A stretch of 64,000 bases of DNA from Streptococcaceae bacterium ESL0729 (GTDB lineage Bacteria > Bacillota > Bacilli > Lactobacillales > Streptococcaceae). Of this stretch, positions 8,872 through 26,962 are shown in pieces. The position numbers and the translations under genes are program-made. Every line of letters starts with the position of its first letter. Position 1 is the stretch's first letter. The notes below the pieces were generated by a model, which searched no databases, was not told the origin of the DNA, and saw nothing but the letters and a program-made list of their open reading frames with translations. Location of the stretch: the NCBI GenBank assembly GCA_029391995.1, contig CP113924.1:837001-901000 (forward strand), in the 5' to 3' direction.

Positions 8872-9630
8872 TTAGTATTTTCTAAATCTTTGATAACGTT
8901 TTTCAACAAGCTCTTCAGGACTTAAGGCAGAAAGAAGCTCAAGTTCAGAAATTAATGCTTCTTTAAGGGTATAAATCGTTCTTTCTTCCGGAATAATCTT
9001 ATCCACTACTCCATTAGCCAAAAGGTCACTAGAAGTTATCTTAAGGAGCTTGGCAGCTTCAGGGGCACGGCTTACGTCCTTCCAAAGGATGGTCGCAAAT
9101 CCTTCTGGTGAGAGAATGCTATAGACAGCATTTTCAAGCATCCAGACCCTATCTGCTACAGCAAGGGCTAGGGCTCCACCAGATCCTCCTTCACCAGTTA
9201 TTATAGCAATAACTGGAACCTTTAGATCACTCATTTCTAAAAGGTTTCTTGCAATGGCCTCACCCTGACCACGCTCCTCGGCACCAAGTCCAGGGAAGGC
9301 TCCTGCCGTATTAATAAAGGTAATAACAGGACGGTTGAATTTTTCAGCCTGCTTCATCAAACGTAGGGCCTTACGGTAACCTTCTGGATGAGGTTGGCCA
9401 AAATTACAGTTTAAATTATCCTGTAGGCTCTTTCCCTTTTGGATTCCAATAATGGTTACTGGACGACCAGAAAGGCTTGCAATCCCACCAACAATGGCAC
9501 CATCATCCCTAAAATTACGGTCCCCGTGGAATTCGATAAAGTCATCAAAAAGCTGTTCAGCATAGTCAAGCATGGTCAGTCTATCTTGACTTCTTGCCAG
9601 CTGAACAATTTTATTAGCATTTTCGGGCAT
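8872..9630 (-). CDS. accA: Acetyl-CoA carboxylase carboxyltransferase, alpha subunit
   Basis: Together with AccD this subunit transfers the carboxyl group from biotin to acetyl-CoA, making malonyl-CoA. The product is 252 residues long, the short form typical of streptococci and lactococci. The crotonase-fold signatures are present: [36 protein letters not shown] and [28 protein letters not shown]. It is the last gene of the cluster, 23 bases after accD, with a GAGGAG ribosome site. Confidence 0.96.
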
Positions 9631-9653
9631 TTTTCTCTCCTCTAAACTTAGCT

Positions 9654-10508
9654 TTAGGAATGTAGGTGCAGGATTTTTCCGATAGTACTAGCTAGATCTT
9701 TCCTTCTAACAATCTTATCAACGAAACCTTTTTCCTGTAAAAATTCCGCCTTCTGGAAATCTTCAGGTAAATTTTCACGTACAGTCTGTTCAATAACCCT
9801 CCGACCTGCAAAACCAACAAGACTTTGCGGCTCAGCCAAGATTATGTCTCCAAGCATGGCAAAAGACGCTGTAACTCCCCCAGTTGTTGGGTCGGTTAGA
9901 ACAGTTAAATAAAGTAAACCTGCATTTGAATGTCTTTTAACCGCAGCCGATATTTTAGCCATTTGCATCAGGCTCATAATCCCTTCCTGCATCCTAGCTC
10001 CACCTGATGCTGTAAAGATGACAACCGGTAGACCCTGAGCCTTAGCATGCTCAAAAAGCCTAGTAATCTTCTCACCAACAACCATTCCCATTGAGGCCAT
10101 AATGAAATTTGGGTCCATGATGGCTAAGGCTGTCTTTTGTCCCTTAATTTTTGCAAGGCCAGTTAGAACAGCTTCATCAAGACCTGTCTTTTCTTTAGTG
10201 AAGGCAAGTTTTTCAGGATAGCCCGGAAAATCAAGGGGGTCAGTTGTTTCAATTCCTGTAAATAGCTCTTCAAAAGATCCCTTATCAACGATAAGCTTAA
10301 GACGCTCCTTAGCAGAAATCCTAAAATTATAACCACAGAAGGGACAAACCTTCTCCTTACCTAAATCCTTAGTGTAGATGGTATGTTTACAAACAGGACA
10401 TTTGGCAAAAAGTTCATCAGGAATTTCAGGCTTACTTACCTTTTCATCTATTGTTGAACGGTTAGGATTTATCCGAATATACTTATTTTTTTTGCTAAAT
10501 AAAGCCAT
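9654..10508 (-). CDS. accD: Acetyl-CoA carboxylase carboxyltransferase, beta subunit
   Basis: This is the zinc-ribbon partner of AccA. The product is 284 residues. A four-cysteine zinc finger lies near the N-terminus ([22 protein letters not shown] split over residues 35-58), and the carboxyltransferase core holds [12 protein letters not shown] and [17 protein letters not shown]. It lies 6 bases after accC. No strong ribosome site is visible, so coupling to accC translation is likely. Confidence 0.96.
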
Positions 10509-10514
10509 GATTTC

Positions 10515-11885
10515 TTAAATCTCTCCCTCTAAATAGTCAGGTAGGAAAACTTCTCCAAGAAAGGAAGTATCATAATCTCCTGCGATAATTTGATCATTTG
10601 AGATCAAGTCTAGTTGGAAGTCTGCATTAGTTTGAACGCCTTCAACTTCAAGCTCAAAAAGAGCCCTTTGCATTTTCATTAATGCCTCAAAACGATTTTC
10701 CCCGTGGACGATTATTTTAGCAATCATACTGTCATAGTAAGGAGGGATGGTATAACCCTGGTACATGGCAGAATCAACTCGCAAGCCAACCCCACCTGAC
10801 GGAAGGTACAAACCACTTATATTACCAGGACTTGGGGCAAAGTTGAATTTAGGATTTTCAGCATTTATACGGCATTCAATAGCGTGACCCGTGAACTCAA
10901 TATCCTCCTGCTGAATATCAAGGCTTTCACCAGCAGCAATTTTGATTTGAGACTTAACGATATCAACTCCAGTTATAAATTCTGTTACGGGATGCTCTAC
11001 CTGAATTCTTGTATTCATTTCCATGAAATAGAAGTCACCAGATTCTTCATCCAGTAAAAATTCAATGGTTCCGGCATTTTCATAACCAACATATGAGGCA
11101 GCAGCTACTGCCGCTTGACCTATTTTATTTCTTAGGCTGTGTCCGATGGCAACTGACGGAGCTTCTTCTAGCACCTTTTGGTTGTTACGCTGGAGGGAGC
11201 AATCACGCTCACCCAGATGGATAACTCGACCAAATTCATCTGCTAGAATCTGCACCTCAATGTGTCTTGCTGGATAGATAACACGTTCTAAATACATGGC
11301 TCCGTTGCCAAAGGCTGCCTGAGCTTCAGCTTGGGCAGAAGCAAAATTAGGAACGAGTTCTTCCTTAGAATTCACCTTCCTAATTCCCTTTCCACCGCCA
11401 CCAGCAGAAGCTTTAAGCATGACTGGGTAGCCAATTTTTTCAGCAATTTCAAGGGCCTCTTGGGCTGAGTAAACCTCCCCATCAGAACCTGGAATAACAG
11501 GGACTTTGGCCGCAATCATTTGCTTACGAGCATTAATCTTATCTCCCATCATGTCCATAATTTTGGCTGATGGCCCAATAAATTTGATTCCCACTTCTTC
11601 ACAGAGGTTAGCAAATTTTGAATTCTCACTTAAAAATCCAAAACCTGGATGGATAGCTTCAGCTTTTAAAGTAACTGCAGCTGAAATTATTTGGTGCATG
11701 TTTAGGTAAGATTCGCTTGCCTTAGCTGGACCTATACAAACTGCTTCATCAGCTAATAAAGTATGAAGGGCATAGCGGTCTGCTTCCGAGTAGACGGCAA
11801 CTGTTTGAATTCCAAGTTCGCGTGCAGCACGGATAATCCTTACTGCAATCTCCCCTCGATTTGCAATTAATATTTTCTTAAACAT
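10515..11885 (-). CDS. accC: Biotin carboxylase subunit of acetyl-CoA carboxylase
   Basis: This ATP-grasp enzyme carboxylates the biotin on AccB. The product is 456 residues, normal length. Signatures are the N-terminal KILIANRGEIAVRIIRAARE, the glycine-rich ATP loop KASAGGGGKGIRKV, and the metal-binding FMEMNTRIQVEHPVTE. It follows fabZ by 11 bases within the same operon. Confidence 0.97.
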   Translation of the reverse strand: MFKKILIANRGEIAVRIIRAARELGIQTVAVYSEADRYALHTLLADEAVCIGPAKASESYLNMHQIISAAVTLKAEAIHPGFGFLSENSKFANLCEEVGIKFIGPSAKIMDMMGDKINARKQMIAAKVPVIPGSDGEVYSAQEALEIAEKIGYPVMLKASAGGGGKGIRKVNSKEELVPNFASAQAEAQAAFGNGAMYLERVIYPARHIEVQILADEFGRVIHLGERDCSLQRNNQKVLEEAPSVAIGHSLRNKIGQAAVAAASYVGYENAGTIEFLLDEESGDFYFMEMNTRIQVEHPVTEFITGVDIVKSQIKIAAGESLDIQQEDIEFTGHAIECRINAENPKFNFAPSPGNISGLYLPSGGVGLRVDSAMYQGYTIPPYYDSMIAKIIVHGENRFEALMKMQRALFELEVEGVQTNADFQLDLISNDQIIAGDYDTSFLGEVFLPDYLEGEI

Positions 11886-11896
11886 GATTCACCAAC

Positions 11897-12319
11897 CTAT
11901 TCACCAATGGCAAAGGTTAAAGTACCCTTTGCGGCTAATTTACCATCAACTGAGGCTTGGGCTTCAACAACGGCAATCGGACCACGGCGTTTAATGAATT
12001 TAGCCTTGAGGATTAGTTGATCACCGGGAACAACTTGCTTTTTAAATTTAACATTATCCATGCCAGCATAAAAAACTAATTTCCCCTTGTTTTCGTCCTT
12101 TGATAATTCAAGAACACCGGCTGCTTGGGCAAGAGCTTCCATGATTAAAACACCTGGCATAACTGGATATTCAGGAAAATGCCCATTAAAGAAAGGTTCA
12201 TTAATAGTAACATTTTTTAAGGCTGTAATCTCATCTTCACTGACCTCAAGGACACGGTCAACTAAAAGCATGGGATAGCGGTGAGGAAGGGCTTCTTTGA
12301 TTTTATTTATATCAATCAT
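11897..12319 (-). CDS. fabZ: 3-hydroxyacyl-ACP dehydratase FabZ
   Basis: This enzyme dehydrates 3-hydroxyacyl-ACP to trans-2-enoyl-ACP. It is 140 residues long with one hot-dog domain: [11 protein letters not shown] near the start, then the catalytic histidine in [22 protein letters not shown], whose glutamate is the partner residue. The ATG overlaps the accB stop as ATGA, showing translational coupling. Nothing seen suggests the isomerase activity of the FabN type, but sequence alone cannot exclude it. Confidence 0.95.
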
Positions 12320-12810
12320 TTGATTCGCACCAAGTCCTCTCCAAACTCAACCATCTCCTCTGATGCTACAAGAATTTCAGTTACAACACCGTCACACGGA
12401 GCTGGAATTTCATTCATGACCTTCATCGCTTCAATAATTAAAAGAGTTTGTCCTTTTTTAACCTTATCGCCAACTGAAATAAAGTCATCCTTATCTGGGG
12501 CTGGTTTTAGGTAGGCAACACCAACAAGGGGACTTTTAACAGCTTCTCCTTCAAGAGCTTCTTCAACCACTACAAGCTCTGGACTTGCAGGAGCATCGCT
12601 AGCTACAGGACTAACTGAGCTAGCAGGAGCTAGAGGAACCTCAACAAATTCTCTTTCACTTACTGTAGTTGAAGACTTTGATGGGCTAAGCTGGCCCGAA
12701 TTTTTAGAAAAGGCAAGATTGAATTCATTAGTTGAATAAGAGAATTCACGAAGGGAAGATTTGTCAAACTGGTTAAGTAAATCCTTAACCTCATTTATAT
12801 GCATAGGCAT
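12316..12810 (-). CDS. accB: Biotin carboxyl carrier protein of acetyl-CoA carboxylase
   Basis: This carrier protein moves carboxybiotin between AccC and AccA/D. The product is 164 residues: an N-terminal helical segment, a Pro/Ala/Ser/Val-rich linker (about residues 45-90), and a C-terminal biotinyl domain with the lysine in EAMKVMNEI. The ATG at 12810 is favoured by GGGAGG 9 bases upstream; it lies 2 bases after the fabF stop. A second in-frame ATG two codons later is possible. Confidence 0.95.
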
Positions 12811-12812
12811 GA

Positions 12813-14060
12813 TTATTCTCCCTCCCACTTCTTAAGAGCGATTACGGCATTGTGTCCACCGAATCCTAATGAGTTTGAGATGGCATACTTGATATGGTGA
12901 TTCTGGCCTTGACCAAGAACAACATTAATCATTGATGTATTTTCATCTAACTCTTTTGTTCCAGCATTAACTGGAGCGTATTGGTTTAAGATTGCCTGTA
13001 GGGTTGCAACAGCTTCAATCCCACCAGCACCACCTAGGGCATGACCTGTTAAAGCTTTAGTAGAAGATACTAAAACATTTTCATCATCGCCAAAGACCGT
13101 ATGAATAGCAAGGGCTTCTCCGCGTTCATTAGCTTGAGTCGAAGTACCGTGAGCATTGATGTACCCTACTTCAGACGGTTCAATACCACCCTCATCAAGG
13201 GCAAGTTTCATAGCCTTAGCAGCTCCTGAACCATCAGTTAATGGTGTTGTCATATGGTAGGCATCATTAGTTGATCCGTAACCTACAATCTCTGCAAGAA
13301 TATTTGCACCGCGGTTTTTAGCATGTTCAAGGCTTTCAAGAACAAGGACACCAGCTCCTTCACCCAGAACAAAACCAGATCTATCCTTGTCAAAAGGAAT
13401 TGATGCTCTCTTAGGATCTGTTTCACTTGTTAGGGCTGTTAGGTTGGCAAACCCTGCCACTCCGAATTCACAGATGGCAGCTTCTGTTCCACCTGCTAAC
13501 ATGATATCTGCATATCCATTTTTGATTTCATGGAAGGCTGATCCGATGGCATTGGTACCAGCAGCACATGCAGTAACTTCAGCACGGCTTACCCCGTTAG
13601 CTTTAACACGAATGGCAACATTACCTGTAGCCATGTTAGCAATTGATAGGGGAACGAAAAGAGGAGCAACCCTTTTTGGACCACGAGTTGCAAGTCTTGC
13701 ACCCTGTTCTTCAATAACCGGTAGCCCTCCGATTCCTGAACCAATAATGGCACCGAAACGGTCATGGTTAAGGTCGTTGTCATCTGGATCAATACCAGCC
13801 ATCTTTAAAGCTTCAAGAGCTGCATAGACTGCGTAAAGGCTGTAAGTATCCATCCTTTTTTTATCCTTGTGGACAAAATATTTATCAAAGGGAAAATCTT
13901 TAATTTCACCTGCAACTGTGATACCAGTCGCACTAGCATCAAATTTTTTAATTACATCAATCCCACTGTTACCAGCAGAAAGGTTCTCCCAAAATTCTTC
14001 CGGGCTATTACCTATAGGTGACGTTATACCATAACCGGTAATAACTACGCGATTTGTCAT
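12813..14060 (-). CDS. fabF: 3-oxoacyl-ACP synthase II FabF
   Basis: This condensing enzyme elongates acyl-ACP with malonyl-ACP. The product is 415 residues. The catalytic triad is visible: Cys in VTACAAGTNAIG, His in NAHGTSTQANERGE, His in STKALTGHALGGAGG. The ATG at 14060 has GAGGAG 7 bases upstream; upstream in-frame codons (TTG, ATG) overlap that ribosome site and are rejected. A gap of 112 bases with secondary structure separates it from fabG. Confidence 0.96.
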   Translation of the reverse strand: MTNRVVITGYGITSPIGNSPEEFWENLSAGNSGIDVIKKFDASATGITVAGEIKDFPFDKYFVHKDKKRMDTYSLYAVYAALEALKMAGIDPDDNDLNHDRFGAIIGSGIGGLPVIEEQGARLATRGPKRVAPLFVPLSIANMATGNVAIRVKANGVSRAEVTACAAGTNAIGSAFHEIKNGYADIMLAGGTEAAICEFGVAGFANLTALTSETDPKRASIPFDKDRSGFVLGEGAGVLVLESLEHAKNRGANILAEIVGYGSTNDAYHMTTPLTDGSGAAKAMKLALDEGGIEPSEVGYINAHGTSTQANERGEALAIHTVFGDDENVLVSSTKALTGHALGGAGGIEAVATLQAILNQYAPVNAGTKELDENTSMINVVLGQGQNHHIKYAISNSLGFGGHNAVIALKKWEGE

Positions 14061-14110
14061 CTTCATACTCCTCAATTAATAAACTACTTCAGGACCGTTT
14101 GTTTAAACTC

Positions 14111-14151
14111 TTCTATTTATACCAATAGAATCTATTAATATGAATAGAAGA
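14111..14151. repeat. Nested inverted repeats between fabG and fabF
   Basis: Outer arms CTTCTATT and AATAGAAG enclose an inner palindrome AATAGAATCTATT. The element lies in the 112-base gap between the two genes on the minus-strand transcript. It could be an mRNA processing or attenuation site. No T run follows. Confidence 0.5.
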
Positions 14152-14172
14152 CAAGGGTCTCCTACTTATTTT

Positions 14173-14907
14173 CTACTGCATGGTTAAACCACCGTCGATT
14201 GCGATGGTTTGACCTGTAAGGTACTCTTGACCTGCTAAGAATAAGGCAACTTCTGCAACTTCAGAAGGGTTTCCGAAACGTTTCATTGGAATTTGAGCCT
14301 TCATGCTATCCTTAACCTTGTCAGATAAAACGTCGGTCATATCACTTTCAATAAATCCAGGAGCAATAGCATTTACCCTGATATTTCGCCCAGCAACCTC
14401 ACGGGCCACTGATTTTGTAAGTCCGATAAGACCTGCCTTAGAAGCAGCATAGTTGGCCTGGCCAATATTTCCCATTAGACCTACGACAGAAGTCATGTTA
14501 ATAACGGCACCTTGACGAGCCTTGGTCATTGGTTTTAAAACTGCTTGAGTCATGTTAAAGGCACCTGACAGGTTGATGTTTAAAACTTGCTCAAAGTCAG
14601 CCAGGGTCATCTTAAGCATGAGTTTATCATTAGTGATTCCTGCATTGTTGATTAGAATATCAACACTTCCTAGGACTTCAGTTGCTTCTTCAATCATTCT
14701 TTTGGCATCAGCTGCATCACTAACATCCCCAGAAATAGCTACAGCACGACCTTCATAGTCCTTAAATTCATTCAAAAGCTCCTCTGAAATTTGAGAGCGC
14801 CCGTTTAAAACAACGTTGGCACCAGCTTTTGCAAACTTGTGGGCAATGGATAAACCAATCCCACGACTTGAACCAGTGATAAAGACGTTTTTATTTAAAA
14901 TTTCCAC
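14173..14907 (-). CDS. fabG: 3-oxoacyl-ACP reductase FabG
   Basis: This NADPH-dependent short-chain dehydrogenase reduces 3-oxoacyl-ACP. It is 244 residues long with the Rossmann loop TGSSRGIGLSIA, NNAGIT, the catalytic Ser in INMTSVVGLMG and the Tyr-x3-Lys pair in YAASKAG. The start is GTG, preceded by GGAGAAATAAAAA and 3 bases after the fabD stop. Confidence 0.96.
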   Translation of the reverse strand: MEILNKNVFITGSSRGIGLSIAHKFAKAGANVVLNGRSQISEELLNEFKDYEGRAVAISGDVSDAADAKRMIEEATEVLGSVDILINNAGITNDKLMLKMTLADFEQVLNINLSGAFNMTQAVLKPMTKARQGAVINMTSVVGLMGNIGQANYAASKAGLIGLTKSVAREVAGRNIRVNAIAPGFIESDMTDVLSDKVKDSMKAQIPMKRFGNPSEVAEVALFLAGQEYLTGQTIAIDGGLTMQ

Positions 14908-14910
14908 TTT

Positions 14911-15831
14911 TTATTTCTCCAAAAATGCTTGTAAGCTTGCTAAATCCTCAACTTGATCAACTTCAACTGTCTTGTCAATCTTTTTAAGGAAACCTGATAA
15001 TACCTTGCCTGGACCAATTTCTAGGAAGTGATTAACTCCAAGATCAATCATCTCTTCTACCGATTCGTAAAATTTAACCGGCTCCATAACCTGACGGGTT
15101 AAAAGATTTTTAATATCATCAAAGGCCATGGCCTGGGCAGTAGTGTTTGATATTAAAGGTAAATCAAATTGATTAAACTCAACTGCTTCAAGAACCTGAC
15201 CTAATTTTTCAGAGGCAGGTTTTAGGATTGCTGTGTGGAAGGGACCTGAAACCTTTAGAGGAATCATTCTCTTAACACCTTCAGCAGAAAGAAGGTCTAA
15301 AGCCTTATCAACTGCTTGAGCTTCCCCGCCGATTACAATCTGCGCCCTTGTATTATAGTTTGCAGGACTTACAATTCCTTGTTCAGAAGCCTTCAAGCAG
15401 ATTTCTTCAATCAATTCAGGATCTGTATTCATAATGGCAACCATTTTACCAGAACCAGCTGGAGCTGCTTCAGTCATAAATCGGCCTCTTTTGGCAACAA
15501 GCTCTAAGGCACTCTTAAAATCTAAGGCACCACTTGCAACTAAGGCAGAATACTCACCTAGAGAAAGACCAGCTACCATCTGATAATCAAGTCCCTTTTC
15601 CTTAAGCAGGCGCAAAATTGCAACTGAAGTCGTAAGAATTGCAGGCTGTGTATAGGTCGTATCTCCTAATTTTTCAGGATCTTCATCAATCAAGTCTCTT
15701 AAATCATAGCCAAGAATATCAGAAGCCTCAGCATAGGTGTCTCTTACAAGATCAAAATTATCATAGAGATCACGAGCCATTCCCACCTTTTGAGCTCCTT
15801 GACCTGCAAATAAAAGTCCAGTTTTTTTCAT
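14911..15831 (-). CDS. fabD: Malonyl-CoA:ACP transacylase FabD
   Basis: This enzyme loads malonyl onto ACP. It is 306 residues long. FAGQGAQKVGM at the N-terminus, the nucleophile serine in GLSLGEYSALVASG and the His in VSGPFHTAIL are the family landmarks. It sits between fabK and fabG on the same strand, with an unusually AT-rich 108-base gap upstream. Confidence 0.96.
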   Translation of the reverse strand: MKKTGLLFAGQGAQKVGMARDLYDNFDLVRDTYAEASDILGYDLRDLIDEDPEKLGDTTYTQPAILTTSVAILRLLKEKGLDYQMVAGLSLGEYSALVASGALDFKSALELVAKRGRFMTEAAPAGSGKMVAIMNTDPELIEEICLKASEQGIVSPANYNTRAQIVIGGEAQAVDKALDLLSAEGVKRMIPLKVSGPFHTAILKPASEKLGQVLEAVEFNQFDLPLISNTTAQAMAFDDIKNLLTRQVMEPVKFYESVEEMIDLGVNHFLEIGPGKVLSGFLKKIDKTVEVDQVEDLASLQAFLEK

Positions 15832-15939
15832 GTCTTATCTTTTCCTCAATATCAATAGGGTCATTTAAAAGACTTGTCTTTAAAAGGACCTTAATTTTGT
15901 TACTTTATTTGTTGCTTATTTGTTACTTTACTTGTTGAC

Positions 15940-16896
15940 TTAGTCAATCCACTTAGCAGCTGCTTTTATTTCAGCTTGGAAACCTTGATATAAATCTAAA
16001 ATGATTTCCTCAACACTTTCTTCCTTACGAACAAGACCAGCTATTTGTCCAGCCATAACTGAACCATTATCAACATCCCCGTGAATTACAGAAGCAGGAA
16101 GTTTTCCAGCTCCCATTTCTTCAAAGACTGATAAATCAGGATTTTCTTGTTTGAAGGCTGCAAGCTCAGCTACCTCAAAGTCCTTAGTTAATTGGTTTTT
16201 GATGGCACGAACAGCATGACCAAAATGACTTGCTGAAATAACAGTTGAAATGTCTTTGGCCTTCAAAACTTTATCTTTATAGTTTTGGTGGGCATTTGAC
16301 TCCTTGGCAACAATAAAACGAGTACCAAGTTGAACAGCTTCAGCTCCTAACATGAAGGCTGCTGCCATTCCTTTACCGTCAGCAATCCCTCCTGCTGCAA
16401 TAACAGGCAAATCAACTGCGTCAGCAACCTGACGAACCAAGGTCATGGTTGTCAGCTGGCCAATGTGACCTCCAGCTTCCATCCCTTCAGCAACAATGGC
16501 ATCAACGCCAATTCTTGCCATTGATTTTGCCTGGGCAACACTTGCAACTACCGGAATAACAACCATTCCAGCTTCTTTGAAGCGTTCCATATATTTTTTA
16601 GGGGAGCCTGCTCCAGTTGTTACAACCTTTACACCTTCTTCAATCACAAGGTCGACAATCTCATCGACAAAGGGCGAATGAAGCATGATATTAACTCCAA
16701 ATGGTTTGTCTGTAATCTCGCGGATGCGTCTAATGTGTCCTTTGATAATATCCTTTGGTGCATTACCACCGCCAATAATACCAAAGCCCCCAGCCTTAGA
16801 TACAGCACCAGCCAAATCTCCATCAGCAACCCAGGCCATACCACCTTGAAAGATTGGATATTCAATGTTTAATAATTCAGTAATTTTAGTTTCCAT
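15940..16896 (-). CDS. fabK: Enoyl-ACP reductase FabK
   Basis: This FMN- and NADH-dependent enoyl-ACP reductase catalyses the last step of each elongation cycle; the FabK type is insensitive to triclosan. The product is 318 residues, a TIM barrel with N-terminal EYPIFQGGMAWVAD, the catalytic-His segment EGMEAGGHIGQLTT, and the FMN phosphate site PVIAAGGIADGKG-x-AAAFMLGAEAVQLGTRF. A FabT palindrome lies just upstream. A second, longer FMN enzyme gene is found at 18985-20082. Confidence 0.93.
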   Translation of the reverse strand: METKITELLNIEYPIFQGGMAWVADGDLAGAVSKAGGFGIIGGGNAPKDIIKGHIRRIREITDKPFGVNIMLHSPFVDEIVDLVIEEGVKVVTTGAGSPKKYMERFKEAGMVVIPVVASVAQAKSMARIGVDAIVAEGMEAGGHIGQLTTMTLVRQVADAVDLPVIAAGGIADGKGMAAAFMLGAEAVQLGTRFIVAKESNAHQNYKDKVLKAKDISTVISASHFGHAVRAIKNQLTKDFEVAELAAFKQENPDLSVFEEMGAGKLPASVIHGDVDNGSVMAGQIAGLVRKEESVEEIILDLYQGFQAEIKAAAKWID

Positions 16897-16935
16897 AATT
16901 TATTATATTTTTTTATTTTTATTACCTTTGATTAA

Positions 16936-16956
16936 ATAGTTTGATTATCAAACTAT
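16936..16956. promoter_or_regulatory. FabT operator upstream of fabK
   Basis: A perfect 21-base palindrome, arms ATAGTTTGAT and ATCAAACTAT around one T. It contains the FabT consensus core TTTGATTATCAAA and lies 40 bases before the fabK start. FabT binding sites at fabT and fabK are established in Streptococcus pneumoniae. Confidence 0.88.
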
Positions 16957-16965
16957 AGCTATAAA

Positions 16966-17003
16966 AAATTTTGAGAACGCTCGCACGTCCTCAGAATTTT
17001 TTA
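16966..17003 (-). terminator. Terminator between acpP and fabK
   Basis: Arms TTTTGAGAACG and CGTCCTCAGAA pair with one A-C mismatch, and A/T runs flank both sides. It lies immediately after the acpP stop codon, so fabK and downstream genes depend on read-through or on the promoter near the FabT operator. Confidence 0.75.
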
Positions 17004-17231
17004 TTATTCAGCAATTTTTTCATTTACGAAGGCTACTAAGTCACCAACTGTATTTAAACCATCTTCAGTTTCAATAGCGATATCGTATTCGTCTTCAATT
17101 TCGTTAATAATTTGGAAGATATCAAGTGAGTCAGCGTCAAGTGAATCAAATGTTGTTTCTAATGTGATTTCGCTTGCGTCTTTACCTAATTCTTCAACGA
17201 TAATTTCTTGAACTTTTTCAAATACTGCCAT
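17004..17231 (-). CDS. acpP: Acyl carrier protein
   Basis: This acidic 75-residue four-helix protein carries acyl chains on a 4'-phosphopantetheine arm attached to Ser35 in the [10 protein letters not shown] motif. Position next to fabH and fabK shows that it is the fatty-acid ACP. In FabT-regulated streptococci acyl-ACP is the FabT co-repressor. It has its own terminator. Confidence 0.97.
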
Positions 17232-17334
17232 GATTAATTCTCCATTTTTCTTTTTCTTATTTATATACTCTTAAAACATCAACTATTTTTTAAATAATAA
17301 ATTCGTTTTTTATTTGTGTTTTAAGTAATATAGG

Positions 17335-18315
17335 CTAAATTCTAACAACAAGTGTTCCCCATGTCAAGCCTCCACCAAATCCGGTCATAACAATCCTTTG
17401 ACTGCCATCTAATTTGATGATTCCTTCTTCTACTGCTTCTGACAGAAGAATGGGAATGCTTGCGGCACTTGTATTACCATATTCTTGCATGTTTTGTAGG
17501 AATTTTTGGCGATCAACACCCACCTTGCGGGCAAGCTTATCTAAAATCCTTGCATTGGCCTGATGCATTAAAAAATAATCAACATCAGCTGCATCAAGTC
17601 CTGCTGCCTCTAAACTAGTACAAATATTTTTGGGTACATCCCTAACAGCAAAGTCAAAGATTGCCCGACCATCCATCCTTAAAAATAAATCGTCAGTGTC
17701 ATTTTCAGATGAAAATGGGGAGCTTGGAGCCGTTAAATTACTAGTAAGGCTCATGGCCCGGCTACCATCAGATTTTAAGGATTCAGCCATGATTAAGGGG
17801 CTTTCAGAATTTGCTTCAAGCAAGACTCCCCCCGCCCCGTCACCAAAGAGAACACTAGTTGTCCTGTCTGACCAGTCAACAACCTTTGAAAGAACCTCTG
17901 CTCCAATAACAACTCCCTTTTGATAGCAGCCACTTACTAAGAGCTTATCAGCGAGGGATAAGGCATAGACAAAGCCACTACAGGCTGCTGTAAGGTCAAA
18001 GGCAAAGGCATTCACTGCTCCAATTTTGGCCTGGACAAGTGAGGCCGTACTTGGCATGTTCCCATCTGGTGAGATGGTCGCAACGATAATGAAATCAAGC
18101 TCCGAAGCCTGGATGGAAGATTTTTCAAGCAGGTCTTTTGCAACCTTAGCTGCTAGATCAGACGTATTTTCATCCCTTGAAATATGACGCCTTCTAATTC
18201 CTGTTCTGCTGGCAATCCACTCATCTGATGTCTCCATGATTTTTCCCAAATCATCATTACTAACAAGCTGATCTGGTGCGTAGTGGGCTGCACTTACTAT
18301 TCTTGCAAAGGTCAT
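17335..18315 (-). CDS. fabH: 3-oxoacyl-ACP synthase III FabH
   Basis: This enzyme starts fatty-acid synthesis by condensing acetyl-CoA (or branched acyl-CoA) with malonyl-ACP. It is 326 residues long. The triad is Cys112 in [12 protein letters not shown], His in [10 protein letters not shown], and Asn in EYGNTSAAS; the C-terminal GFGGGLTWG loop is also typical. The ATG overlaps the fabT stop (ATGA), coupling the two genes. Confidence 0.96.
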
Positions 18316-18752
18316 TTTATCTCCTCTAAAAAGGTATTGAGGTTTTCCAAGCCAGTTTGGAGGATTTTTACAGAATCATCCGGTAAACCGGCAACCAAAC
18401 GTTTGACCATCTCCCGGTGAAACTTCTTATGCAGGCGGTAAAGTAGTCTACCTCGGCTGGTCAAGGATACATTGACCACTCGTCTGTCGCTTTCACTTCG
18501 GTAACGCTCAATATAACCTTTTTTCTCCAATCGATTTAAGGATACGGTTATGGTTCCTACCGTTACCATCAAATCCTTAGCTATGTCACTTGGCGTTGTA
18601 ACTTTTGCCTCACCAATGCTATCGATAGTGTGCATTTCCTTTATTGAAACATCTGAGAATTGTGACGATTGCAGGCTTGCTTCTTCAATAATTAAAACAT
18701 TATTGAAGATATGCGTAAGATATCCATTGATTTTTGTGTAATCTATAGCCAA
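18312..18752 (-). CDS. fabT: MarR-family fatty-acid repressor FabT
   Basis: This winged-helix repressor controls the fab cluster, with long-chain acyl-ACP as co-repressor. The product is about 146 residues. [60 protein letters not shown] form the helix-turn-helix and wing and closely match streptococcal FabT. There is no ATG; two TTG codons two apart are candidates. The one at 18752 is better spaced from AAAGGAG and matches the short N-terminus of the family. Its promoter and operators lie immediately upstream. Confidence 0.93.
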
Positions 18753-18778
18753 ACACAATCTCCTTTATTTATTATAAT

Positions 18779-18896
18779 TTTGATTATCAAACTATTTGAC
18801 CATCAAATTATATCAAGATGTATGAAGGCTGTCAATATATCTTTAAAAATTACTTTGATTATCAAATGATTTGATAATCAAACTTTGACATTCAAA
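18779..18896. promoter_or_regulatory. Divergent fabT / fabX-like control region with five FabT-type palindromes
   Basis: TTTGATTATCAAA at 18779-18791, TTTGACCATCAAA at 18795-18807, TTTGATTATCAAA at 18854-18866, TTTGATAATCAAA at 18870-18882 and TTTGACATTCAAA at 18884-18896. The second overlaps the fabT -10 and the fifth overlaps the -35 of the divergent gene, so both promoters should be repressed by FabT. Confidence 0.88.
18807..18835 (-). promoter_or_regulatory. fabT promoter
   Basis: Consensus TTGACA (18835-18830) and TATAAT (18812-18807) with a 17-base spacer on the minus strand. The -10 overlaps a FabT box, which fits autoregulation. Confidence 0.85.
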
Positions 18897-18912
18897 TAAA
18901 GTTTGCTAAAAT
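18885..18912 (+). promoter_or_regulatory. Promoter of the FabX-like gene
   Basis: TTGACA (18885-18890) and TAAAAT (18907-18912) with a 16-base spacer, about 70 bases before the start codon. The -35 lies within the fifth FabT box. Confidence 0.75.
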
Positions 18913-18984
18913 AGATTGTGTGGTTTATTTCATTCACATGATAAAACCATCAAATAATTTTACAAATTTGAATAAGGAAGAAAA

Positions 18985-20082
18985 ATGAAACTACCAGAAT
19001 TAAAAATAGGTGATTTAACTGCCAAAATCCCAATTATACAAGGGGGAATGGGGATTGGAATTTCCCTCAATCGTCTTGCAGGATCTGTTGCTGCCCAGGG
19101 TGGAATTGGGATTCTCTCAACTGCACAAATTGGTTATCAGGAGGAGGGTTTTAAACGTTCTTCGGTCAGAACCAACTTAAAAGCCATTAAAACTCAGCTT
19201 GATAAGGCACGTAGTTTTGCCCAGGGTGGAATTCTTGGGTTTAATGTAATGGTAGCAAGTTTTCGCTATGATGATGTGGTCAAGGCAACCGTTGAGGCTG
19301 GGGCTGATGTCATTATTTCAGGGGCTGGTCTACCCATGAACCTGCCTGAACTTGTTGGAAATGCGAAAACCAGGATTGCTCCAATCGTCTCATCTGTTAA
19401 GGCGGCTAAGATTATCCTCCGTAACTGGGCTAAAAAATATAATAGGACAGCTGATTTTGTCGTGATTGAAGGACCTAAGGCAGGGGGCCACCTTGGTTTT
19501 AAGGCTGACCAAATCGAAGAGGCCATCCTTACCATGGATGAGGAGGTTGTAAAAATCATTGAGCATGTCAGGGAGTATGAGGAAAAATTCAACCAATCAA
19601 TTCCTGTTATCTTTGCTGGTGGTGTTTGGAACCGAAGTGATATCGACCACTATCTAAGCCTTGGATGCTCTGGAGTCCAGATGGCTACACGTTTTATCGG
19701 AACTGAGGAATGTGATGCCCCAGATGACTTCAAAGACCGCTTTCTTAAGGCAACAGAAGATGATATCCACCTAACGACATCACCTGTTGGCCTTCCGGGG
19801 CGTGCCATTGATAATAAATTTACTGAAATAATTACCAAGGGAGCTCCTGCCTACAAGGCCCAAGAAGACCCTAAAACTCCGATTATCCCCATTGCTGGCT
19901 GCCTCAACTGCCTGCAAAAGAAATTGTGTGACAGAAAAACCATTCCCTACTGCATCAGTGAGGCCCTCCTCAACTCTGTTGAACATAATACAGATATGGG
20001 ACTTATCTTCTCAGGGTCAAATGGTTACCGAATCAATGAAATCACAACGGTTAAGGCAATTTTTGACGAACTCAAAGGATAA
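18985..20082 (+). CDS. FMN-dependent nitronate-monooxygenase-family enzyme with a Cys cluster, FabX/UfaA-like
   Basis: This is a 365-residue TIM-barrel flavoprotein. PIIQGGMGIGISLNRLAG opens the barrel, VVIEGPKAGGHLGF carries the catalytic histidine typical of FabK and its relatives, and PVIFAGGVWNRSDID plus GVQMATRFIGTEEC bind the FMN phosphate. Beyond FabK it has a C-terminal extension with Cys306-x2-Cys309-x5-Cys315-x7-Cys323, resembling the [4Fe-4S] site of Helicobacter FabX, which makes the cis-3 double bond for unsaturated fatty acids. Neisseria UfaA belongs to the same family. It occupies the position where streptococci have fabM and sits under FabT boxes. The role in unsaturated fatty-acid synthesis is inferred; a second enoyl reductase is the main alternative. 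Start chosen at ATG after AAGGAAG. Confidence 0.8.
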   Translation: MKLPELKIGDLTAKIPIIQGGMGIGISLNRLAGSVAAQGGIGILSTAQIGYQEEGFKRSSVRTNLKAIKTQLDKARSFAQGGILGFNVMVASFRYDDVVKATVEAGADVIISGAGLPMNLPELVGNAKTRIAPIVSSVKAAKIILRNWAKKYNRTADFVVIEGPKAGGHLGFKADQIEEAILTMDEEVVKIIEHVREYEEKFNQSIPVIFAGGVWNRSDIDHYLSLGCSGVQMATRFIGTEECDAPDDFKDRFLKATEDDIHLTTSPVGLPGRAIDNKFTEIITKGAPAYKAQEDPKTPIIPIAGCLNCLQKKLCDRKTIPYCISEALLNSVEHNTDMGLIFSGSNGYRINEITTVKAIFDELKG

Positions 20083-20108
20083 AAAAGATAGGTTTTCCTA
20101 TCTTTTTT
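20081..20108 (+). terminator. Terminator of the FabX-like gene
   Basis: Perfect arms AAAAAAGATAGG and CCTATCTTTTTT around a 4-base loop, starting at the stop codon. Confidence 0.9.
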
Positions 20109-20178
20109 AGTTTTCAGCTTTTTTATTCCTAGCTATTTTGCTAAAATTAGCCTTGTAAATAATTAAATGGAGAAGATA

Positions 20179-21123
20179 ATGGCAAATTTAAGAGCAAGTT
20201 TTATTGGACACACCTATGACAATCCTTTTATGAACGCATCAGGTGTTCACTGTATGGATTCCTTAGAACTAGACCAGCTGGCAGAATCACAGGCTGGATC
20301 ATTTGTTACCAAATCAGCGACCCAAGAAGCCCGTCTTGGAAATCCAGAACCTCGTTATGTTAATCTGGACCTTGGAAGCATTAACTCCATGGGTCTTCCC
20401 AACAAGGGACTTGATTATTACCTTGATTATGCCATTAAAAGGCAAGAAGCTTATCCAAATTCACCTTTTGTCATGAGTGTTGCTTCATACAAGGGCTTTG
20501 ATGAGTATGTCGAAAACATGAGAACAATTCAAGATAGCGACTATACAGGGCTTGTTGAGCTTAATCTTTCTTGTCCAAATGTTCCTGGAAAACCTCAAAT
20601 GGCCTATGATTTTGAGGATACTGAAAAACTTCTCAAGGAGATTTTCGCCTTCTATACCAAGCCTTTTGGAGTTAAACTTCCACCTTACTTTGACATCATG
20701 CACTTTGATAAGATTGCTAGCGTCCTTAATCAATTTGACTTAAAATTTGTTAACTGCGTTAATTCAATCGGTAACGGCCTTTATATTGATGAGGCTACAG
20801 ACACTGTTGTCATCAAGCCAAAGGGTGGTTTTGGAGGAATCGGGGGCGAATATATTAAACCTACAGCTCTTGCCAATGTCCGTGCCCTTAAAGAACGTCT
20901 GAATCCAAGTATCGAAATCATTGGAACTGGTGGAATTATAAATGGGCGTGATGCTTATGAACACCTACTTTGCGGGGCTTCCATGCTACAAGTTGGAACC
21001 CAGCTTCAAAAAGAAGGACTCGGTGTGTTTGACCGCCTGAACCAAGAACTTCTTGAAATCCTTGAAGCCAAAGGATTTGATTCAATTGATGACTTCAAAG
21101 GAAAACTCAAGACCATTGACTAA
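20179..21123 (+). CDS. pyrDA: Dihydroorotate dehydrogenase, class 1A (fumarate-dependent)
   Basis: This cytosolic FMN enzyme oxidises dihydroorotate to orotate with fumarate as acceptor. The product is 314 residues and very like lactococcal Pyr[13 protein letters not shown] at the N-terminus, [35 protein letters not shown] with the active-site cysteine, and [27 protein letters not shown] at the FMN phosphate site are all present. The ATG at 20179 has GGAG 6 bases upstream; an ATG four codons earlier forms part of that ribosome site. It stands alone with its own terminator. Confidence 0.95.
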
Positions 21124-22502: not shown

Positions 22503-22539
22503 AAATGGCTATTATTCTACTGTAGAGTAATAGCCATTT
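22503..22539 (-). terminator. Long hairpin at the end of hsdR
   Basis: Arms AAATGGCTATTA and TAATAGCCATTT are perfect over 12 bases and continue inward as TCTAC/GTAGA. The structure includes the hsdR stop codon. A TTTT run follows on the minus strand. Confidence 0.7.
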
Positions 22540-25500
22540 TCTTCAGCCGCAAATAAATAATTATTACTTATTTCCTCATCACTATAACTTCCTTCGCCTG
22601 CATCAGCCCACATCTCTGCTTGACGCAGAACTGTTTTAAGAGCCTCCACTTGCTCTTCTGGCGGATACTTATACTTACGGAGAAGACGTTTAATCATCCT
22701 GCGCATTCCCGCACGTGTAGATTCCTTCAACTGCCAGTCAATGGTTCTGTTTTTCCTAAGCATGTCAGTCAATTCATGTACCATATTCAACAATTGGTCA
22801 TTATTATAAAAATCTTTTACGGCTTTAGGTTGGGTTAAAGCATCGTAGAAAGCCTGTTCTTCAGGAGTTAAATTTAACTCATTTGCCTCCCTACTAAGTT
22901 TAACCATATCTTTTGCCATGTCCATAAGCTCTTTAATAACCTCTTCATTAGTCAAAAGACCATTTATGTAAGTATTCATAGCACGGCTAAGTTTGTCAGA
23001 AAATTTTTCTGACTGAACCAGGTTAATTCGCTGATAGATTCTTATTTGCTCAACCAAGAGTTTTTTCAGGATCTCCACAGCAATATTTTTCTCCTTCATC
23101 TTAGAAACTTCTTCTAGAAATTTGGAATCAAAAAGAGAAAAATCACTGTCCGCTGTAGAAAAAAGATTAATGACACCCTTGGTGTGGATACTGGCCTCAA
23201 TCAGATTATTAATTCTTTCATTAATTTCCCTGAAAGAAAGAGGCTTATCTGCTCCCGTAATTCGAGTGAGGAGAGTTCGGACCGCTTCAAAATAAGCAAG
23301 TTCATAGCGCTCTTCAGGCCTTAAAAGCGAGCTACATAGGGAAGCTGCTTGACGAAGTAGAGTAGCCTCCCGAATAAATCTCTCTTTTTCATCCTGCCTT
23401 TGTGGGGCCAGAAGAAAATTTGTCCCTCCACTGATAAGTCGACTACGAGCCAAATCAGTAGTACTAGCAGCGAACATACCTGAGTAATCATACCCACAGA
23501 GAAGCTCCCGACAACATTCAAGTTTTTCCTTAAATCTTGGAAGAGCTGTTTTTGCGATATCCGGATCACCAAAGTTCCCCTTGTCTCGTTTGGTATAGTC
23601 ATTCATAGCCTCTTTAAGTGCCCCTGCTATACCAATATAGTCAACAACTAGACCCCCTACCTTTTCTCCATAAACCCGGTTTACACGAGCAATAGCCTGC
23701 ATCAAATTATGACCCTTCATCGGCTTATAGACATACATGGTCGCAAGACTCGGGACATCAAAACCAGTCAGCCACATGTCAACGACAATGGCAATCTTAA
23801 AGGGATCTTCATTGTCCTTAAATTTCCTGGCCATCTCATTTTTATGGTGCTTATTTCCAACTATTTCATGCCAATTTTCCGGGTCATTATTGTTTGAAGT
23901 CATTACAACTCCAATCTTTTCTTTCCAAGAAGGTCTGAGTTCTAACATTCTCTTATAAATCTTCATGGCAATTGGCCGAGAATAGGCAACAACCATGGCC
24001 TTACCAGTAAGCTCATTTTCCCGGAAGTTCTCATAATGATCTATAATATCTTTAACCAAGGCGTCAACCGTCTGATCAGCGCCTAAAATAGACTCCAAAC
24101 GACCCAACTCACGCTTACTTCTCTCAATAGCGTATTCTTCAGCCTCATCTGCCATCAGGGCGTATTCATCATCAATTTTTCTGAGAATATTATCATCCAG
24201 GTTGAGATGGATAACCCGACTTTCATAAAAGACTGGACGAGTAGCCCGGTCTTCCACAGCCTGGGTCATATCATAGATATCAATATAGTCTCCAAAAACT
24301 TCAGTTGTAGACTTGTCCTTAGCAGAAATTGGTGTTCCTGTAAAACCAATATATGTCGCATTTGGCAGCTGGTCACGAATGATACGGGCTGTTCCAACTG
24401 TGATTTTACCAGTCTTTGCATCTACTTTTTCTCTGAGTCCATATTGTCCCCTATGGGCTTCATCAGCCATAACGACTATATTTCTTCTTTCTGAGAGAGG
24501 TTCATCAAGCTCCTCAAACTTTTGCATGGTGGTAAAGATAATACCATTGGCCTTACGGTCGGAAAGGAGGTTTTTTAGATGTTCTCGGCTTCCAGCTTGA
24601 ATTGGTTCCTGCCGTAAGAAATCTTTACATTTTGAAAACTGACTGAAGAGCTGGTTGTCCAAATCATTCCGATCAGTTATAACAACAACCGTTGGTGACC
24701 CCATAACTTCTTGAAGTTCATGGGTATAAAAGACCATGGAAAGAGATTTTCCGCTTCCTTGAGTATGCCAGAAGACCCCTCCTTTTCCACGATCTTTCCC
24801 CTCGGTTTCTGCTGCATGTTCTGTAGACACCACAGCCTTATTAACTGCATAATACTGATGATAAGCCGCAAGAATTTTGGTATCGCCAGAAAAACAGATG
24901 AAATTCTTTAAAATATTTAAGAAACGTTTTTTATCGAATATCCCTTCAACTAGTGTATCCCATTGGGCATGCTGAGTATTTTCATAACTCCCGTCAATAG
25001 TTTTCCATTCCATATAACGATCTTCATTTGCAGTAATAGTACCAGCCTTAGATGTTGCAAGGTCTGTCGTTACTGAAAAAGCATTATAGGAAAAAAGACC
25101 TGGAATTTCTTTTTGATAGGTCTTAAGCTGAAGGTAGGCATCATAAAAATCTGTACTTGTTCTAGATGGACTTTTTAATTCAAATACAACAAGTGGTAGT
25201 CCATTTAAAAATACAATTATATCTGGCCTTTTTTCACTATTTTCTATTACTGTCCATTGATTAATGACTTTGAATGAGTTTAGGTCAATATTTTCATAGT
25301 CGACAAGCTTAACAAGCGAATATCTTTCCTCATTCCCATCGAAATAAGAAACTTCAACTCCATTTTGGATCCAATCCGTAACTAACTTATTTTTCTCAAT
25401 TAAACTTCCAAGTCCCAATCGTGTTATTTTGCTAAGAGCTTCATTAATTGCATCTTGAGGAAGAGATGCATTTATTCTTTCAAGTGATGAAATAAGATCA

Positions 25501-25622: not shown

Positions 25623-25755
25623 CCCATCTCCTCCTTCGCTCTTTAATTAATTAGCTTATAACCCTTCTTCCCACGACAAAAAGACCATACGCATATACTT
25701 TTTTTCCTTTATTATAGCAGGAATTATAGCTTATGGCCTAAAAAAGCTTTGAAAC

Positions 25756-25772
25756 GGTAAATCATCATTTAG
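25756..25772 (+). repeat. hsdS inversion site 1 (start of the inverted C-terminal half)
   Basis: GGTAAATCATCATTTAG, identical to the copy at 28007-28023 and inverted relative to those at 26404 and 28660. In the reading frame of the inverted hsdS half it encodes Val-Asn-His-His-Leu. Confidence 0.88.
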
Positions 25773-26395
25773 AAGAAATTCTCAGAATTCATTTTAGAAA
25801 TTTGTTGAAAACAGAGCCATTAGAAACACACTCACTAAAAGATCTAGCAACTATTATAGATAACAGAGGAAAAACACCTCCTTTATGTCCCTATAGTTCA
25901 TTCCCACTGATAGATGTTCGAACTTTAAGTGGGGACACAAGGATTATTGATTATAAAAATGCTCAAAAGTTTATAGACGAAGAAACTTTTAATAATTGGT
26001 TCCGAAGCGGTCATCCCCATCGTTATGACACTTTGATATCGACAGTTGGAAGTATTGGCTTGTTAAAAATGTTTTTGGAGGAGAAGGGGACAATTGCTCA
26101 AAATATTGTTGCGCTGCGTCCTAAATATGGCAATGGCATATTCCTTTATCAACTGTTAAAAAATTTACAGAAAAAGATACAAGCATATGACATTGGGTCA
26201 GTTCAACCAAGTATAAAAGTGACTCAATTCATGAGAGAAACAGTAGAAATTCCAATCATTGAGTATGTAACCTCCTGGGAAAATGAAGTCGAAGCTCTGG
26301 TTTTGCAGATCGAAAACAATTCTAAGGAAATAGGATTTTTGGAAGACCTTCGTGATACATTGCTTCCAAAACTTATCTCCGGCAGAATTTTTTAA
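25760..26395 (+). pseudogene. Silent inverted C-terminal half of a second hsdS (TRD2 cassette)
   Basis: The frame is open from inversion site 1 (Asn-His-His-Leu-Glu-Glu-Ile-Leu) to the TAA at 26393-26395. It encodes about 211 residues: SLKDLATIIDNRGKTPP (a typical HsdS TRD start), a DNA-recognition domain, and the C-terminal conserved helix ending LRDTLLPKLISGRIF. It lies opposite to the other hsd genes and has no good start codon or ribosome site; only TTG codons occur at 25802-25807. It is best read as a stored recombination cassette. Inverting 25756-26420 would join it in frame to the N-terminal half at 26397-26951. Confidence 0.88.
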
Positions 26396-26951: not shown

Positions 26952-26962
26952 TGAATATTTTC

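What the first reader, a model, noticed from the sequence alone, without database searches (positions are those of the whole stretch)
18985..20082. FabX/UfaA-like flavoenzyme replaces fabM at the head of the fab cluster
Seen: an FMN-barrel protein divergent from fabT, with four cysteines (306, 309, 315, 323) and the AGGHLG histidine. Its -35 lies inside a FabT box. No fabM is present in the window. Known: streptococci normally place fabM here to make unsaturated fatty acids; Helicobacter FabX is an FMN and [4Fe-4S] dehydrogenase/isomerase of the same family, and Neisseria UfaA is related. Inference: this lineage may make its unsaturated fatty acids with a FabX-type enzyme under FabT control, a route not usual for Streptococcaceae.
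Basis: partly seen in the sequence, partly recalled or inferred. Interest (0 to 1): 0.82.

Follow-up and report, generated by a model that had tools for sequence, protein, structure and literature searches.

The report
FabX-type unsaturated-lipid enzyme replaces FabM
A streptococcus-like bacterium lacks the usual enzyme for making unsaturated membrane fats and instead carries, apparently under the same fat-synthesis switch, a relative of the iron-sulphur flavoenzyme FabX known from Helicobacter, which also fits the long-missing enzyme of clostridia.

Summary
Window 18985-20082 encodes a 365-aa FMN-barrel protein divergent from fabT, with Cys306/309/315/323 and His169. It matches H. pylori FabX over its full length (E 7e-71, 42% identity, VIA Z 48.7), far better than FabK (Z 35.9 or less), and groups with FabX at 100/100. 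The four cysteines align with FabX's [4Fe-4S] ligands, with different spacing (CX2CX5CX7C). The one-contig genome has no FabM, no PF00487 desaturase and one FabZ, 84-90% identical to FabZ of three FabM-carrying genomes. Of 335 genomes in the family, 26 carry the gene; none of the 26 shows FabM or a second FabZ. The slot before fabT holds fabM, a FabZ-like paralogue or divergent fabX in different lineages. Five FabT-type boxes fill the fabT-fabX spacer. Best reading: this is the lineage's unsaturated-fatty-acid (UFA) enzyme, repressed by FabT. Homologues sit in clostridial fab clusters and in 103 of 116 sampled Clostridiaceae-type genomes, where the UFA enzyme was reported unknown in 2009. FabX/UfaA is a known family already linked to anaerobes, so this is a new variant of a known kind. 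Open: the exact reaction, the electron acceptor, any biochemistry. Three Enterococcus carriers also have a second FabZ-family gene.

The parts
18985..20082 (+). fabX-like gene: FMN barrel with a C-terminal four-cysteine subdomain (Cys306, 309, 315, 323) and catalytic-type His169
18884..18912 (+). putative fabX promoter, -35 TTGACA at 18885-18890 and -10 TAAAAT at 18907-18912; the -35 lies in a FabT-type box at 18884-18896
   Evidence: consensus match only
18854..18896 (.). three FabT-type boxes (18854 and 18870 exact; 18884 with 2 mismatches) upstream of and over the fabX -35
   Evidence: 0 of 500 simulations reach the count of the spacer
18779..18807 (.). two FabT-type boxes (18779 exact; 18795 with 2 mismatches) at and just downstream of the -10 of the fabT promoter
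   Evidence: - strand promoter-like site 18835-18807, 12 of 12 matches
18312..18758 (-). fabT, MarR-type repressor of fatty-acid synthesis
   Evidence: NF050133 229.4 bits over cut-off 200
17335..18315 (-). fabH
   Evidence: order of the cluster and homologues in other fab clusters; name from sequence reading
17004..17231 (-). acpP, acyl carrier protein
   Evidence: name from sequence reading
16940..16952 (.). exact FabT-type box upstream of fabK
15940..16896 (-). fabK, the enoyl-ACP reductase; the FabK role is therefore already filled
   Evidence: TIGR03151 478.7 bits over cut-off 453.1; S. pneumoniae FabK 2z6i 523.6 bits
14911..15831 (-). fabD
   Evidence: name from sequence reading
14173..14907 (-). 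fabG
   Evidence: name from sequence reading
12813..14075 (-). fabF
   Evidence: name from sequence reading; no search for a second FabF was made
12316..12828 (-). accB
   Evidence: name from sequence reading
11897..12319 (-). fabZ, the only FabA/FabZ-family (PF07977) match of the genome
   Evidence: TIGR01750 203.8 bits, cut-off 155.15
8872..11885 (-). accC, accD, accA
   Evidence: names from sequence reading
20167..21123 (+). pyrD (class 1A dihydroorotate dehydrogenase), also beside fabX in G002, G039 and G046; no role in the reading

Best explanation
The gene encodes the unsaturated-fatty-acid branch-point enzyme of this lineage, a FabX-family FMN/[4Fe-4S] enzyme. It acts on C10 acyl-ACP (decanoyl- or trans-2-decenoyl-ACP) and yields cis-3-decenoyl-ACP, which FabF elongates to UFAs while FabK makes the saturated chains. 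Shown here: family, fold, catalytic-type and cluster-ligand residues, absence of the alternative UFA genes sought, a conserved place beside fabT, FabT-type boxes, purifying selection. Inferred: bound FMN and [4Fe-4S], the substrate, the reaction, and repression by FabT. The gene stands where g10 relatives have fabM and others a FabZ-like paralogue.
For: Full-length match to H. pylori FabX, E 7e-71, against 3e-22 for the best FabK. AlphaFold model pLDDT 93.9, pTM 0.92; best PDB match FabX 7e1q, Z 48.7, rmsd 2.0, 346 aligned; best FabK Z 35.9. Tree: 16 FabK rows split from 49 FabX rows (H. pylori and window included) at 100/100. H. pylori N99, E175, H182, Q240, T243, K152 and C300/304/308/320 (roles from PMC8626469) are kept as N87, E162, H169, Q232, T235, K139 and C306/309/315/323. 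The cysteine motif is in 0 of 44 FabK ORFs. Own genome: no FabM, one FabZ, no PF00487 desaturase. 26 of 26 carriers lack a FabM-level ECH match (the weak matches of 17 carriers, 19-28 bits, all lie in accA) and have at most one PF07977 gene. 7 of 7 g10 genomes tested have FabM-level matches: 6 are 64-100% identical to the G274 protein, which is FabM by NF050134 at 482 bits. fabX is divergent from fabT in 9 of 12 other carrier neighbourhoods viewed. FabT-type boxes. The single FabZ is 84-90% identical to FabZ of three FabM-carrying g10 genomes.
Against: No biochemistry or fatty-acid profile. H. pylori FabX needs O2 as electron acceptor (PMC8626469), while this clade sits among fermenters and anaerobes. 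H. pylori T130 and Y277 are not conserved (M118, L270), R160 is N147 and R164 is K151. Three Enterococcus carriers (L067, L069, L070) also have a second FabZ-family gene, so the gene is not always the sole candidate. Cysteine spacing differs from H. pylori (CX3CX3CX11C). Of 12 other carrier neighbourhoods, G008 has fabX beside fabH without a recognised fabT and without boxes, and in G006 and G007 no fab gene is in view.
Confidence: 0.85

Rival explanations
1. It is a second FabK-type enoyl-ACP reductase, or an ordinary nitronate monooxygenase, with no part in UFA synthesis.
For: Pfam places it in PF03060 NMO (169.6 bits), the superfamily that also holds FabK. In F. nucleatum, FabX overexpression partly relieves FabK inhibition (PMC11091888 passages).
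Against: FabK model 120.9 bits, cut-off 453.1. It falls outside FabK at 100/100. Its C-terminal part carries four cysteines whose motif is absent from 44 of 44 FabK ORFs. A true FabK is in the cluster. Its promoter lies among FabT-type boxes, and relatives across Bacillota lie in fab clusters.
Confidence: 0.06
2. The single FabZ isomerises (as FabN or FabQ do) and makes the UFAs; the FabX-like protein does something else.
For: No sequence signature denotes isomerase ability in FabZ (PMC2700279 Discussion).
Against: This FabZ is 84-90% identical to that of three g10 genomes, which have FabM, so it is probably dehydratase-only. Of 9 examined genomes with neither FabM nor FabX, 7 have a second FabZ-family gene (exceptions G031 and G032). 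C. acetobutylicum FabZ, also single, does not isomerise (PMC2700279).
Confidence: 0.06
3. The lineage makes no UFAs and scavenges them; the FabX-like gene is incidental.
For: Small genome (1.448 Mb). Exogenous fatty acids can bypass FAS in some Lactobacillales (PMC9260719 passage).
Against: A full FAS II cluster with fabX among the same kind of operator sites and dN/dS 0.014; the gene persists in 26 genomes of 7 genera.
Confidence: 0.03

Closest known systems
Helicobacter pylori FabX (HP0773; PDB 7e1q, 9lt5)
   Same: Whole fold (Z 48.7), 42% identity, catalytic His, FMN residues, four cluster cysteines, ACP-facing K152.
   Different: Cysteine spacing CX2CX5CX7C against CX3CX3CX11C; T130, R160 and Y277 not kept; paired here with FabK, beside fabT; O2 dependence unknown.
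UfaA, Neisseria gonorrhoeae NGO1024 (the name UfaA is recalled)
   Same: By PMC11300592 (passages) a FabX homologue essential for anaerobic UFA synthesis with unknown electron acceptor; it works like what is proposed here.
   Different: Sequence not in hand; kinship not tested.
Fusobacterium nucleatum FabX (C4N14_08920)
   Same: FabX and FabK in one organism, cluster cysteines kept (PMC11091888 passages).
   Different: No arrangement beside fabT described in the passages read.
FabM of Streptococcus pneumoniae and of genus g10
   Same: Same place (next to fabT, head of the fab cluster; 3 of 3 g10 loci) and presumably same product, cis-3-decenoyl-ACP (PMC2700279 Background).
   Different: Unrelated family (PF00378); no homology.
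FabN of Enterococcus faecalis / FabZ paralogues
   Same: A second FabZ-family gene occupies the same slot before fabT in G001, G003, G029 and G033.
   Different: Unrelated family (PF07977); sits in clusters without a recognised fabK. That these paralogues isomerise is inferred.

Membership tests
FabX | NMO-type FMN barrel with the FMN residues N99, E175, Q240, T243 | tested here: met
   N87, E162, Q232, T235; PF03060 169.6 bits; model Z 48.7 to 7e1q
FabX | Catalytic histidine (H182) | tested here: met
   H169; His in 110 of 110 FabX-like ORFs
FabX | Four cysteines that hold [4Fe-4S] in a C-terminal subdomain | tested here: met
   C306/309/315/323 align with C300/304/308/320; each column Cys in 109 or 110 of 110 ORFs; spacing differs. 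Only residues tested
FabX | Bound [4Fe-4S] cluster and FMN | not testable with these tools
   needs purified protein
FabX | ACP-contact residues K152, I156, R160, R164, T130 | tested here: inconclusive
   K139 and I143 kept, R164 is K151, R160 is N147, T130 is M118
FabX | Clade with H. pylori FabX apart from FabK | tested here: met
   100/100 split, 49 against 16 rows; H. pylori is on a long branch
FabX | Decanoyl-ACP dehydrogenase/isomerase, O2 as acceptor | not testable with these tools
   assay needed
FabK | NCBIfam FabK equivalog score over cut-off | tested here: not met
   120.9 bits against 453.1
FabM | Crotonase-family (PF00378) protein | tested here: not met
   no PF00378 match for the protein at E 0.001; none over cut-off in the genome
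UfaA (N. gonorrhoeae) | Same clade as NGO1024 | not tested
   sequence not obtained; paper not held
Nitronate monooxygenase | PF03060 superfamily match | tested here: met
   169.6 bits, cut-off 28; superfamily level only
Nitronate monooxygenase | Oxidation of nitronates | not testable with these tools
   assay needed

The most novel reading that the evidence does not exclude
The Bacillota clade to which this gene belongs (CX2CX5CX7C in Lactobacillales, mostly CX2CX3CX7C in clostridia) is an oxygen-independent branch of FabX that makes UFAs in anaerobes. It either isomerises the trans-2-decenoyl-ACP released by FabZ without net redox change, or hands electrons through the cluster to an unknown cell carrier. 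It would be the enzyme that the classical clostridial pathway has lacked, and Lactobacillales would have received it from clostridia and put it in the fabM slot.
Probability: 0.4. Interest if true: 0.8.

Novelty: new variant of a known kind. Interest (0 to 1): 0.62.

Why it matters
If true, one chromosomal slot beside one regulator has been filled by three unrelated enzymes for the same step (FabM, a FabZ/FabN-like paralogue, FabX), a clean case of non-orthologous displacement that seems tied to the choice of enoyl reductase. The same gene in fab clusters of clostridia, and in 103 of 116 sampled genomes of the family of C. tyrobutyricum, makes a long-open question directly testable: which enzyme introduces the double bond in clostridia (PMC2700279). 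It also bears on the claim that FabX relatives are rare in human-associated bacteria (PMC8626469 Discussion, PMC12079444 passages): homologues of this clade lie in records named Blautia, Roseburia and Dialister, genera that I recall as having human gut members. That a FabX-like protein might serve anaerobes lacking FabA was raised in 2011 (title of Isabella and Clark, seen in the reference list of PMC11300592), which lowers the novelty.

Tried and rejected
Rejected: FabK duplicate (model score and tree); FabM or a FabA/FabZ-family enzyme elsewhere in the genome; desaturase (only PF00487 was sought, not PF03405). The weak ECH matches of carriers, of which G049 and G050 pass the 27-bit cut-off at 28-29 bits, are all accA (17 of 17 loci). 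ECH matches of 257-265 bits in g5 and g6 (G011, G018, G029, G030) were first suspected to be FabM: the two scanned (L038, L039) are MenB over cut-off, and all four are only 26-28% identical to FabM. Strict mutual exclusion everywhere was rejected: the three Enterococcus carriers tested have two FabZ-family genes each.

Led nowhere: a search for FabT operator literature gave nothing useful, so the box core TTTGATTATCAAA is recalled, not cited. Searches for print on this gene in Lactobacillales: 'FabX' alone from 2015, 20 papers, 19 listed; FabX+Streptococcus; FabX+Clostridium; FabX+FabM+FabA; fabT+nitronate monooxygenase; fabM+Lactobacillales. Going by titles and abstract starts, and by passages of the few papers opened, none reports it for Lactobacillales; this is an open-licence library only. 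The UfaA search gave one unrelated paper. Isabella and Clark 2011 and Bi et al. 2016 are not held.

Not done: naming the species. That the family is Streptococcaceae and g10 Streptococcus is inference from FabT, FabK and FabM matches; my guess that g9 is Pseudolactococcus and g5 Lactococcus is unverified.

Rows left out: one search counts 110 different FabX-like ORFs of 250 aa or more, so fragments (L032, L033) and identical copies are missing. The tree uses 47 of these 110 and 15 of 44 FabK ORFs, plus the window's two proteins and H. pylori FabX. Searches were given 42 of 335 family genomes (all 26 carriers, 16 others); one search also had 6 genomes behind named loci. In one search the G001 accC value (46%) is a match to another gene, because its accC is split in my ORF list, and was dropped.

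Full report
What is there. The ORF at 18985-20082 (+) encodes 365 aa. [quoted passage not shown] names other than fabT, fabK, fabZ and pyrD from sequence reading). FabT reaches its equivalog cut-off (229 against 200 bits) and FabK its own (479 against 453), while the protein in question reaches only 121 bits on the FabK model. The genome is one contig of 1,448,317 bases, 99.93% complete.

Which family. Against the Protein Data Bank by sequence, the first four distinct sequences are H. pylori FabX entries (E 7e-71, residues 3-363; titled FabX); the best FabK has E 3e-22. In MAFFT the window protein is 42% identical to H. pylori FabX. A model from the window protein aligned with 41 locus proteins has mean pLDDT 93.9 and pTM 0.92; its weakest blocks are residues 281-300 (69 and 62). 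FabX 7e1q aligns with Z 48.7, 346 residues, rmsd 2.0; FabK structures have Z 35.9 or less, nitronate monooxygenases and the related quinone reductase about 27-34. A shared fold shows no function, but the gap between FabX and FabK is large. In a tree of 65 rows, 16 FabK and 49 FabX rows are split at 100/100, H. pylori on the FabX side with a long branch (1.45), and the window in a group of Lactobacillales and one Lachnospiraceae MAG nested among clostridia.

Active-site residues. PMC8626469 (abstract, passages, and sections 9 and 13 read) gives FMN contacts N99, E175, Q240, T243, catalytic H182, cluster ligands C300, C304, C308, C320 and ACP contacts that include K152, R160, R164 and T130. In the window these are N87, E162, Q232, T235, H169, C306, C309, C315, C323, K139, N147, K151 and M118. 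In 110 different FabX-like ORFs the Asn, Glu, His and Gln columns are invariant, Thr is T in 97 and S in 13, and the cysteine columns are 109, 110, 110 and 110 (L204 is the odd one). The spacing is CX2CX5CX7C in 31 ORFs (29 Lactobacillales, plus L068 and L100 of Lachnospiraceae), CX2CX3CX7C in 78, and 1 fits neither. H. pylori has CX3CX3CX11C. 0 of 44 FabK ORFs have the CX2CX5CX7C motif.

What else could make the double bond. Own genome: one ECH_1 match below cut-off, which is accA; one FabA/FabZ-family gene, the fabZ of the cluster; no PF00487 desaturase. The single FabZ is a FabZ equivalog (203.8 bits) and is 84-90% identical to the FabZ of three g10 genomes, where fabM coexists; so it is probably not the isomerase (inference).

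Distribution in the family. Of 335 genomes in 10 genera, 26 carry a FabX orthologue at 63-100% identity: 2 of 4 in the window's genus g1, 5 of 5 in g2, 1 in g3, 1 in g4, 3 in g7, 2 in g8 and 12 in g9 (G005 is a fragment with a stop in the match, G037 is in two pieces). g10, the largest genus, has only FabK-level matches (86.9 bits at best). I gave 42 genomes, all 26 carriers and 16 others, to the ECH and FabA/FabZ searches. Carriers with a FabM-level ECH match: 0 of 26; 17 have a weak match of 19-28 bits, two of them over the 27-bit cut-off, and all 17 are accA. Carriers with more than one PF07977 gene: 0 of 26 (G004 and G036, 58% and 83% complete, have none). Of the 16 others, 7 of 7 g10 genomes have FabM-level matches (151-181 bits), 6 of them checked as FabM relatives (64-100% identity; G054 not fetched); 7 of the remaining 9 have two or more PF07977 genes; G031 and G032 have one each and no FabM. 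The ECH matches of g5 and g6 are MenB in the two of four scanned, and all four are 26-28% identical to FabM. In a sample of 246 genomes of the order, which held none of the other 25 carriers, only the window's genome and 5 genomes of one genus in another family (f3) carry it at E 1e-60; the two of these five that were put in the tree group with Enterococcus.

The slot. In 3 of 3 g10 loci viewed fabM lies directly before fabT on the same strand. In G001, G003, G029 and G033 a second FabZ-family gene lies there, in clusters without a recognised fabK. G011 has neither in view. Of 12 carrier neighbourhoods viewed besides the window's, fabX is divergent from fabT in 9 (G002, G009, G010, G034, G035, G038, G039, G042, G046), divergent from fabH without a recognised fabT in 1 (G008), and without fab genes in view in 2 (G006, G007). 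All.

Regulation. With the recalled core TTTGATTATCAAA, the 226-bp spacer holds three exact and two 2-mismatch boxes; 0 of 500 first-order simulations reach the counts at 1 or 2 mismatches, 1 of 500 at 3. The fabX -35 lies in box 18884-18896, and boxes 18779 and 18795 lie at and downstream of the fabT -10. Another exact box lies before fabK (16940). Boxes with 2 mismatches or fewer occur in 9 of 10 other fabX spacers scanned (none in G008), and an exact box lies just before fabX in records named Clostridium tyrobutyricum and a Lachnospiraceae MAG (L098, L074). Of the three g10 loci scanned, two show boxes with 1 mismatch or fewer near fabM and one (G163) shows none at that level. Binding is inferred.

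Outside the family. In 48 of 80 loci at least two fab genes other than fabG lie within 8 kb, a lower bound because some contigs end early. In C. tyrobutyricum and C. [quoted passage not shown] In the family of C. tyrobutyricum 103 of 116 sampled genomes carry it. PMC2700279 (abstract, Background and Discussion read) reports that C. acetobutylicum lacks fabA, fabM and fabN, that its single FabZ does not isomerise, and that the enzyme was unknown in 2009; I did not identify C. acetobutylicum itself among the genomes. The genomes of L083 (C. celatum), L098 (C. tyrobutyricum) and L076 (Dialister) have one PF07977 gene each; counter-case: L067, L069 and L070 (Enterococcus) have two each.

How it may work. 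H. [quoted passage not shown] O2 cannot serve strict anaerobes. NGO1024 of N. gonorrhoeae, a FabX homologue, is essential for anaerobic UFA synthesis with unknown acceptor (PMC11300592 passages). I recall, without a source read here, that clostridia fed octanoate and decanoate place the double bond as expected if it is set after one more elongation, which would favour isomerisation of the enoyl intermediate over dehydrogenation of a saturated chain. So two mechanisms stay open: dehydrogenase/isomerase with another acceptor, or isomerase only. I did not test for a conserved redox-partner gene.

Origin. RNase Y of G001 and G003 (own genus, no fabX) is 85% identical to the window's, that of two g9 genomes 71-73%. 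For the eleven fab genes shared the order is reversed: 61-94% with these g9 genomes, 36-68% with G001 and G003. G001 and G003 keep the left neighbours of the block (murI to rny) but have other genes where the window has the fab block, and their fab cluster lies on another contig. Either the window's lineage took a FabK/FabX-type fab block (with pyrD) from a g9-like donor, or the other lineage replaced its own. UFA genes thus differ within one genus.

Verdict. Confirmed observation; a FabX-type UFA enzyme under FabT control is the best reading (0.85). The family is known; the setting, the replacement pattern and the clostridial link make it a new variant of a known kind.

Noticed in passing
window 8872-21123 against L176, L177, L179, L189, L205-L208: The fab block (accA to fabX and pyrD) appears horizontally replaced within the genus: RNase Y is 85% identical to G001/G003 and 71-73% to two g9 genomes, while eleven fab genes are 36-68% to G001/G003 and 61-94% to g9. 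Direction not settled.
   Followed up: partly
window 25752-29197: Beside a type I restriction-modification set (hsdR-like 22512-25622, hsdM-like 29181-30689; labels from sequence reading) lie an integrase-like gene 26963-27952 and split hsdS-like pieces with perfect 27-bp inverted repeats at 26393-26419 and 28009-28035, as in phase-variable specificity switches.
   Followed up: partly
L067, L069, L070: Enterococcus genomes carry fabX divergent from fabT and also a second FabZ-family gene; why both are kept is unexplained.
   Followed up: no
L176, L177, L194, L195: The four clusters with a FabZ-like paralogue before fabT lack a recognised fabK, while the FabM- and FabX-type clusters seen whole in the family have fabK, so UFA route and enoyl-reductase type seem to go together. 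In Enterococcus L069 and L070 the fabX-side clusters lack a recognised fabK.
   Followed up: partly
L068, L100: Two Lachnospiraceae records carry FabX with the CX2CX5CX7C spacing otherwise seen in Lactobacillales; L068 (MAG, 61% identity) sits at the base of that group, by transfer or misbinning.
   Followed up: no
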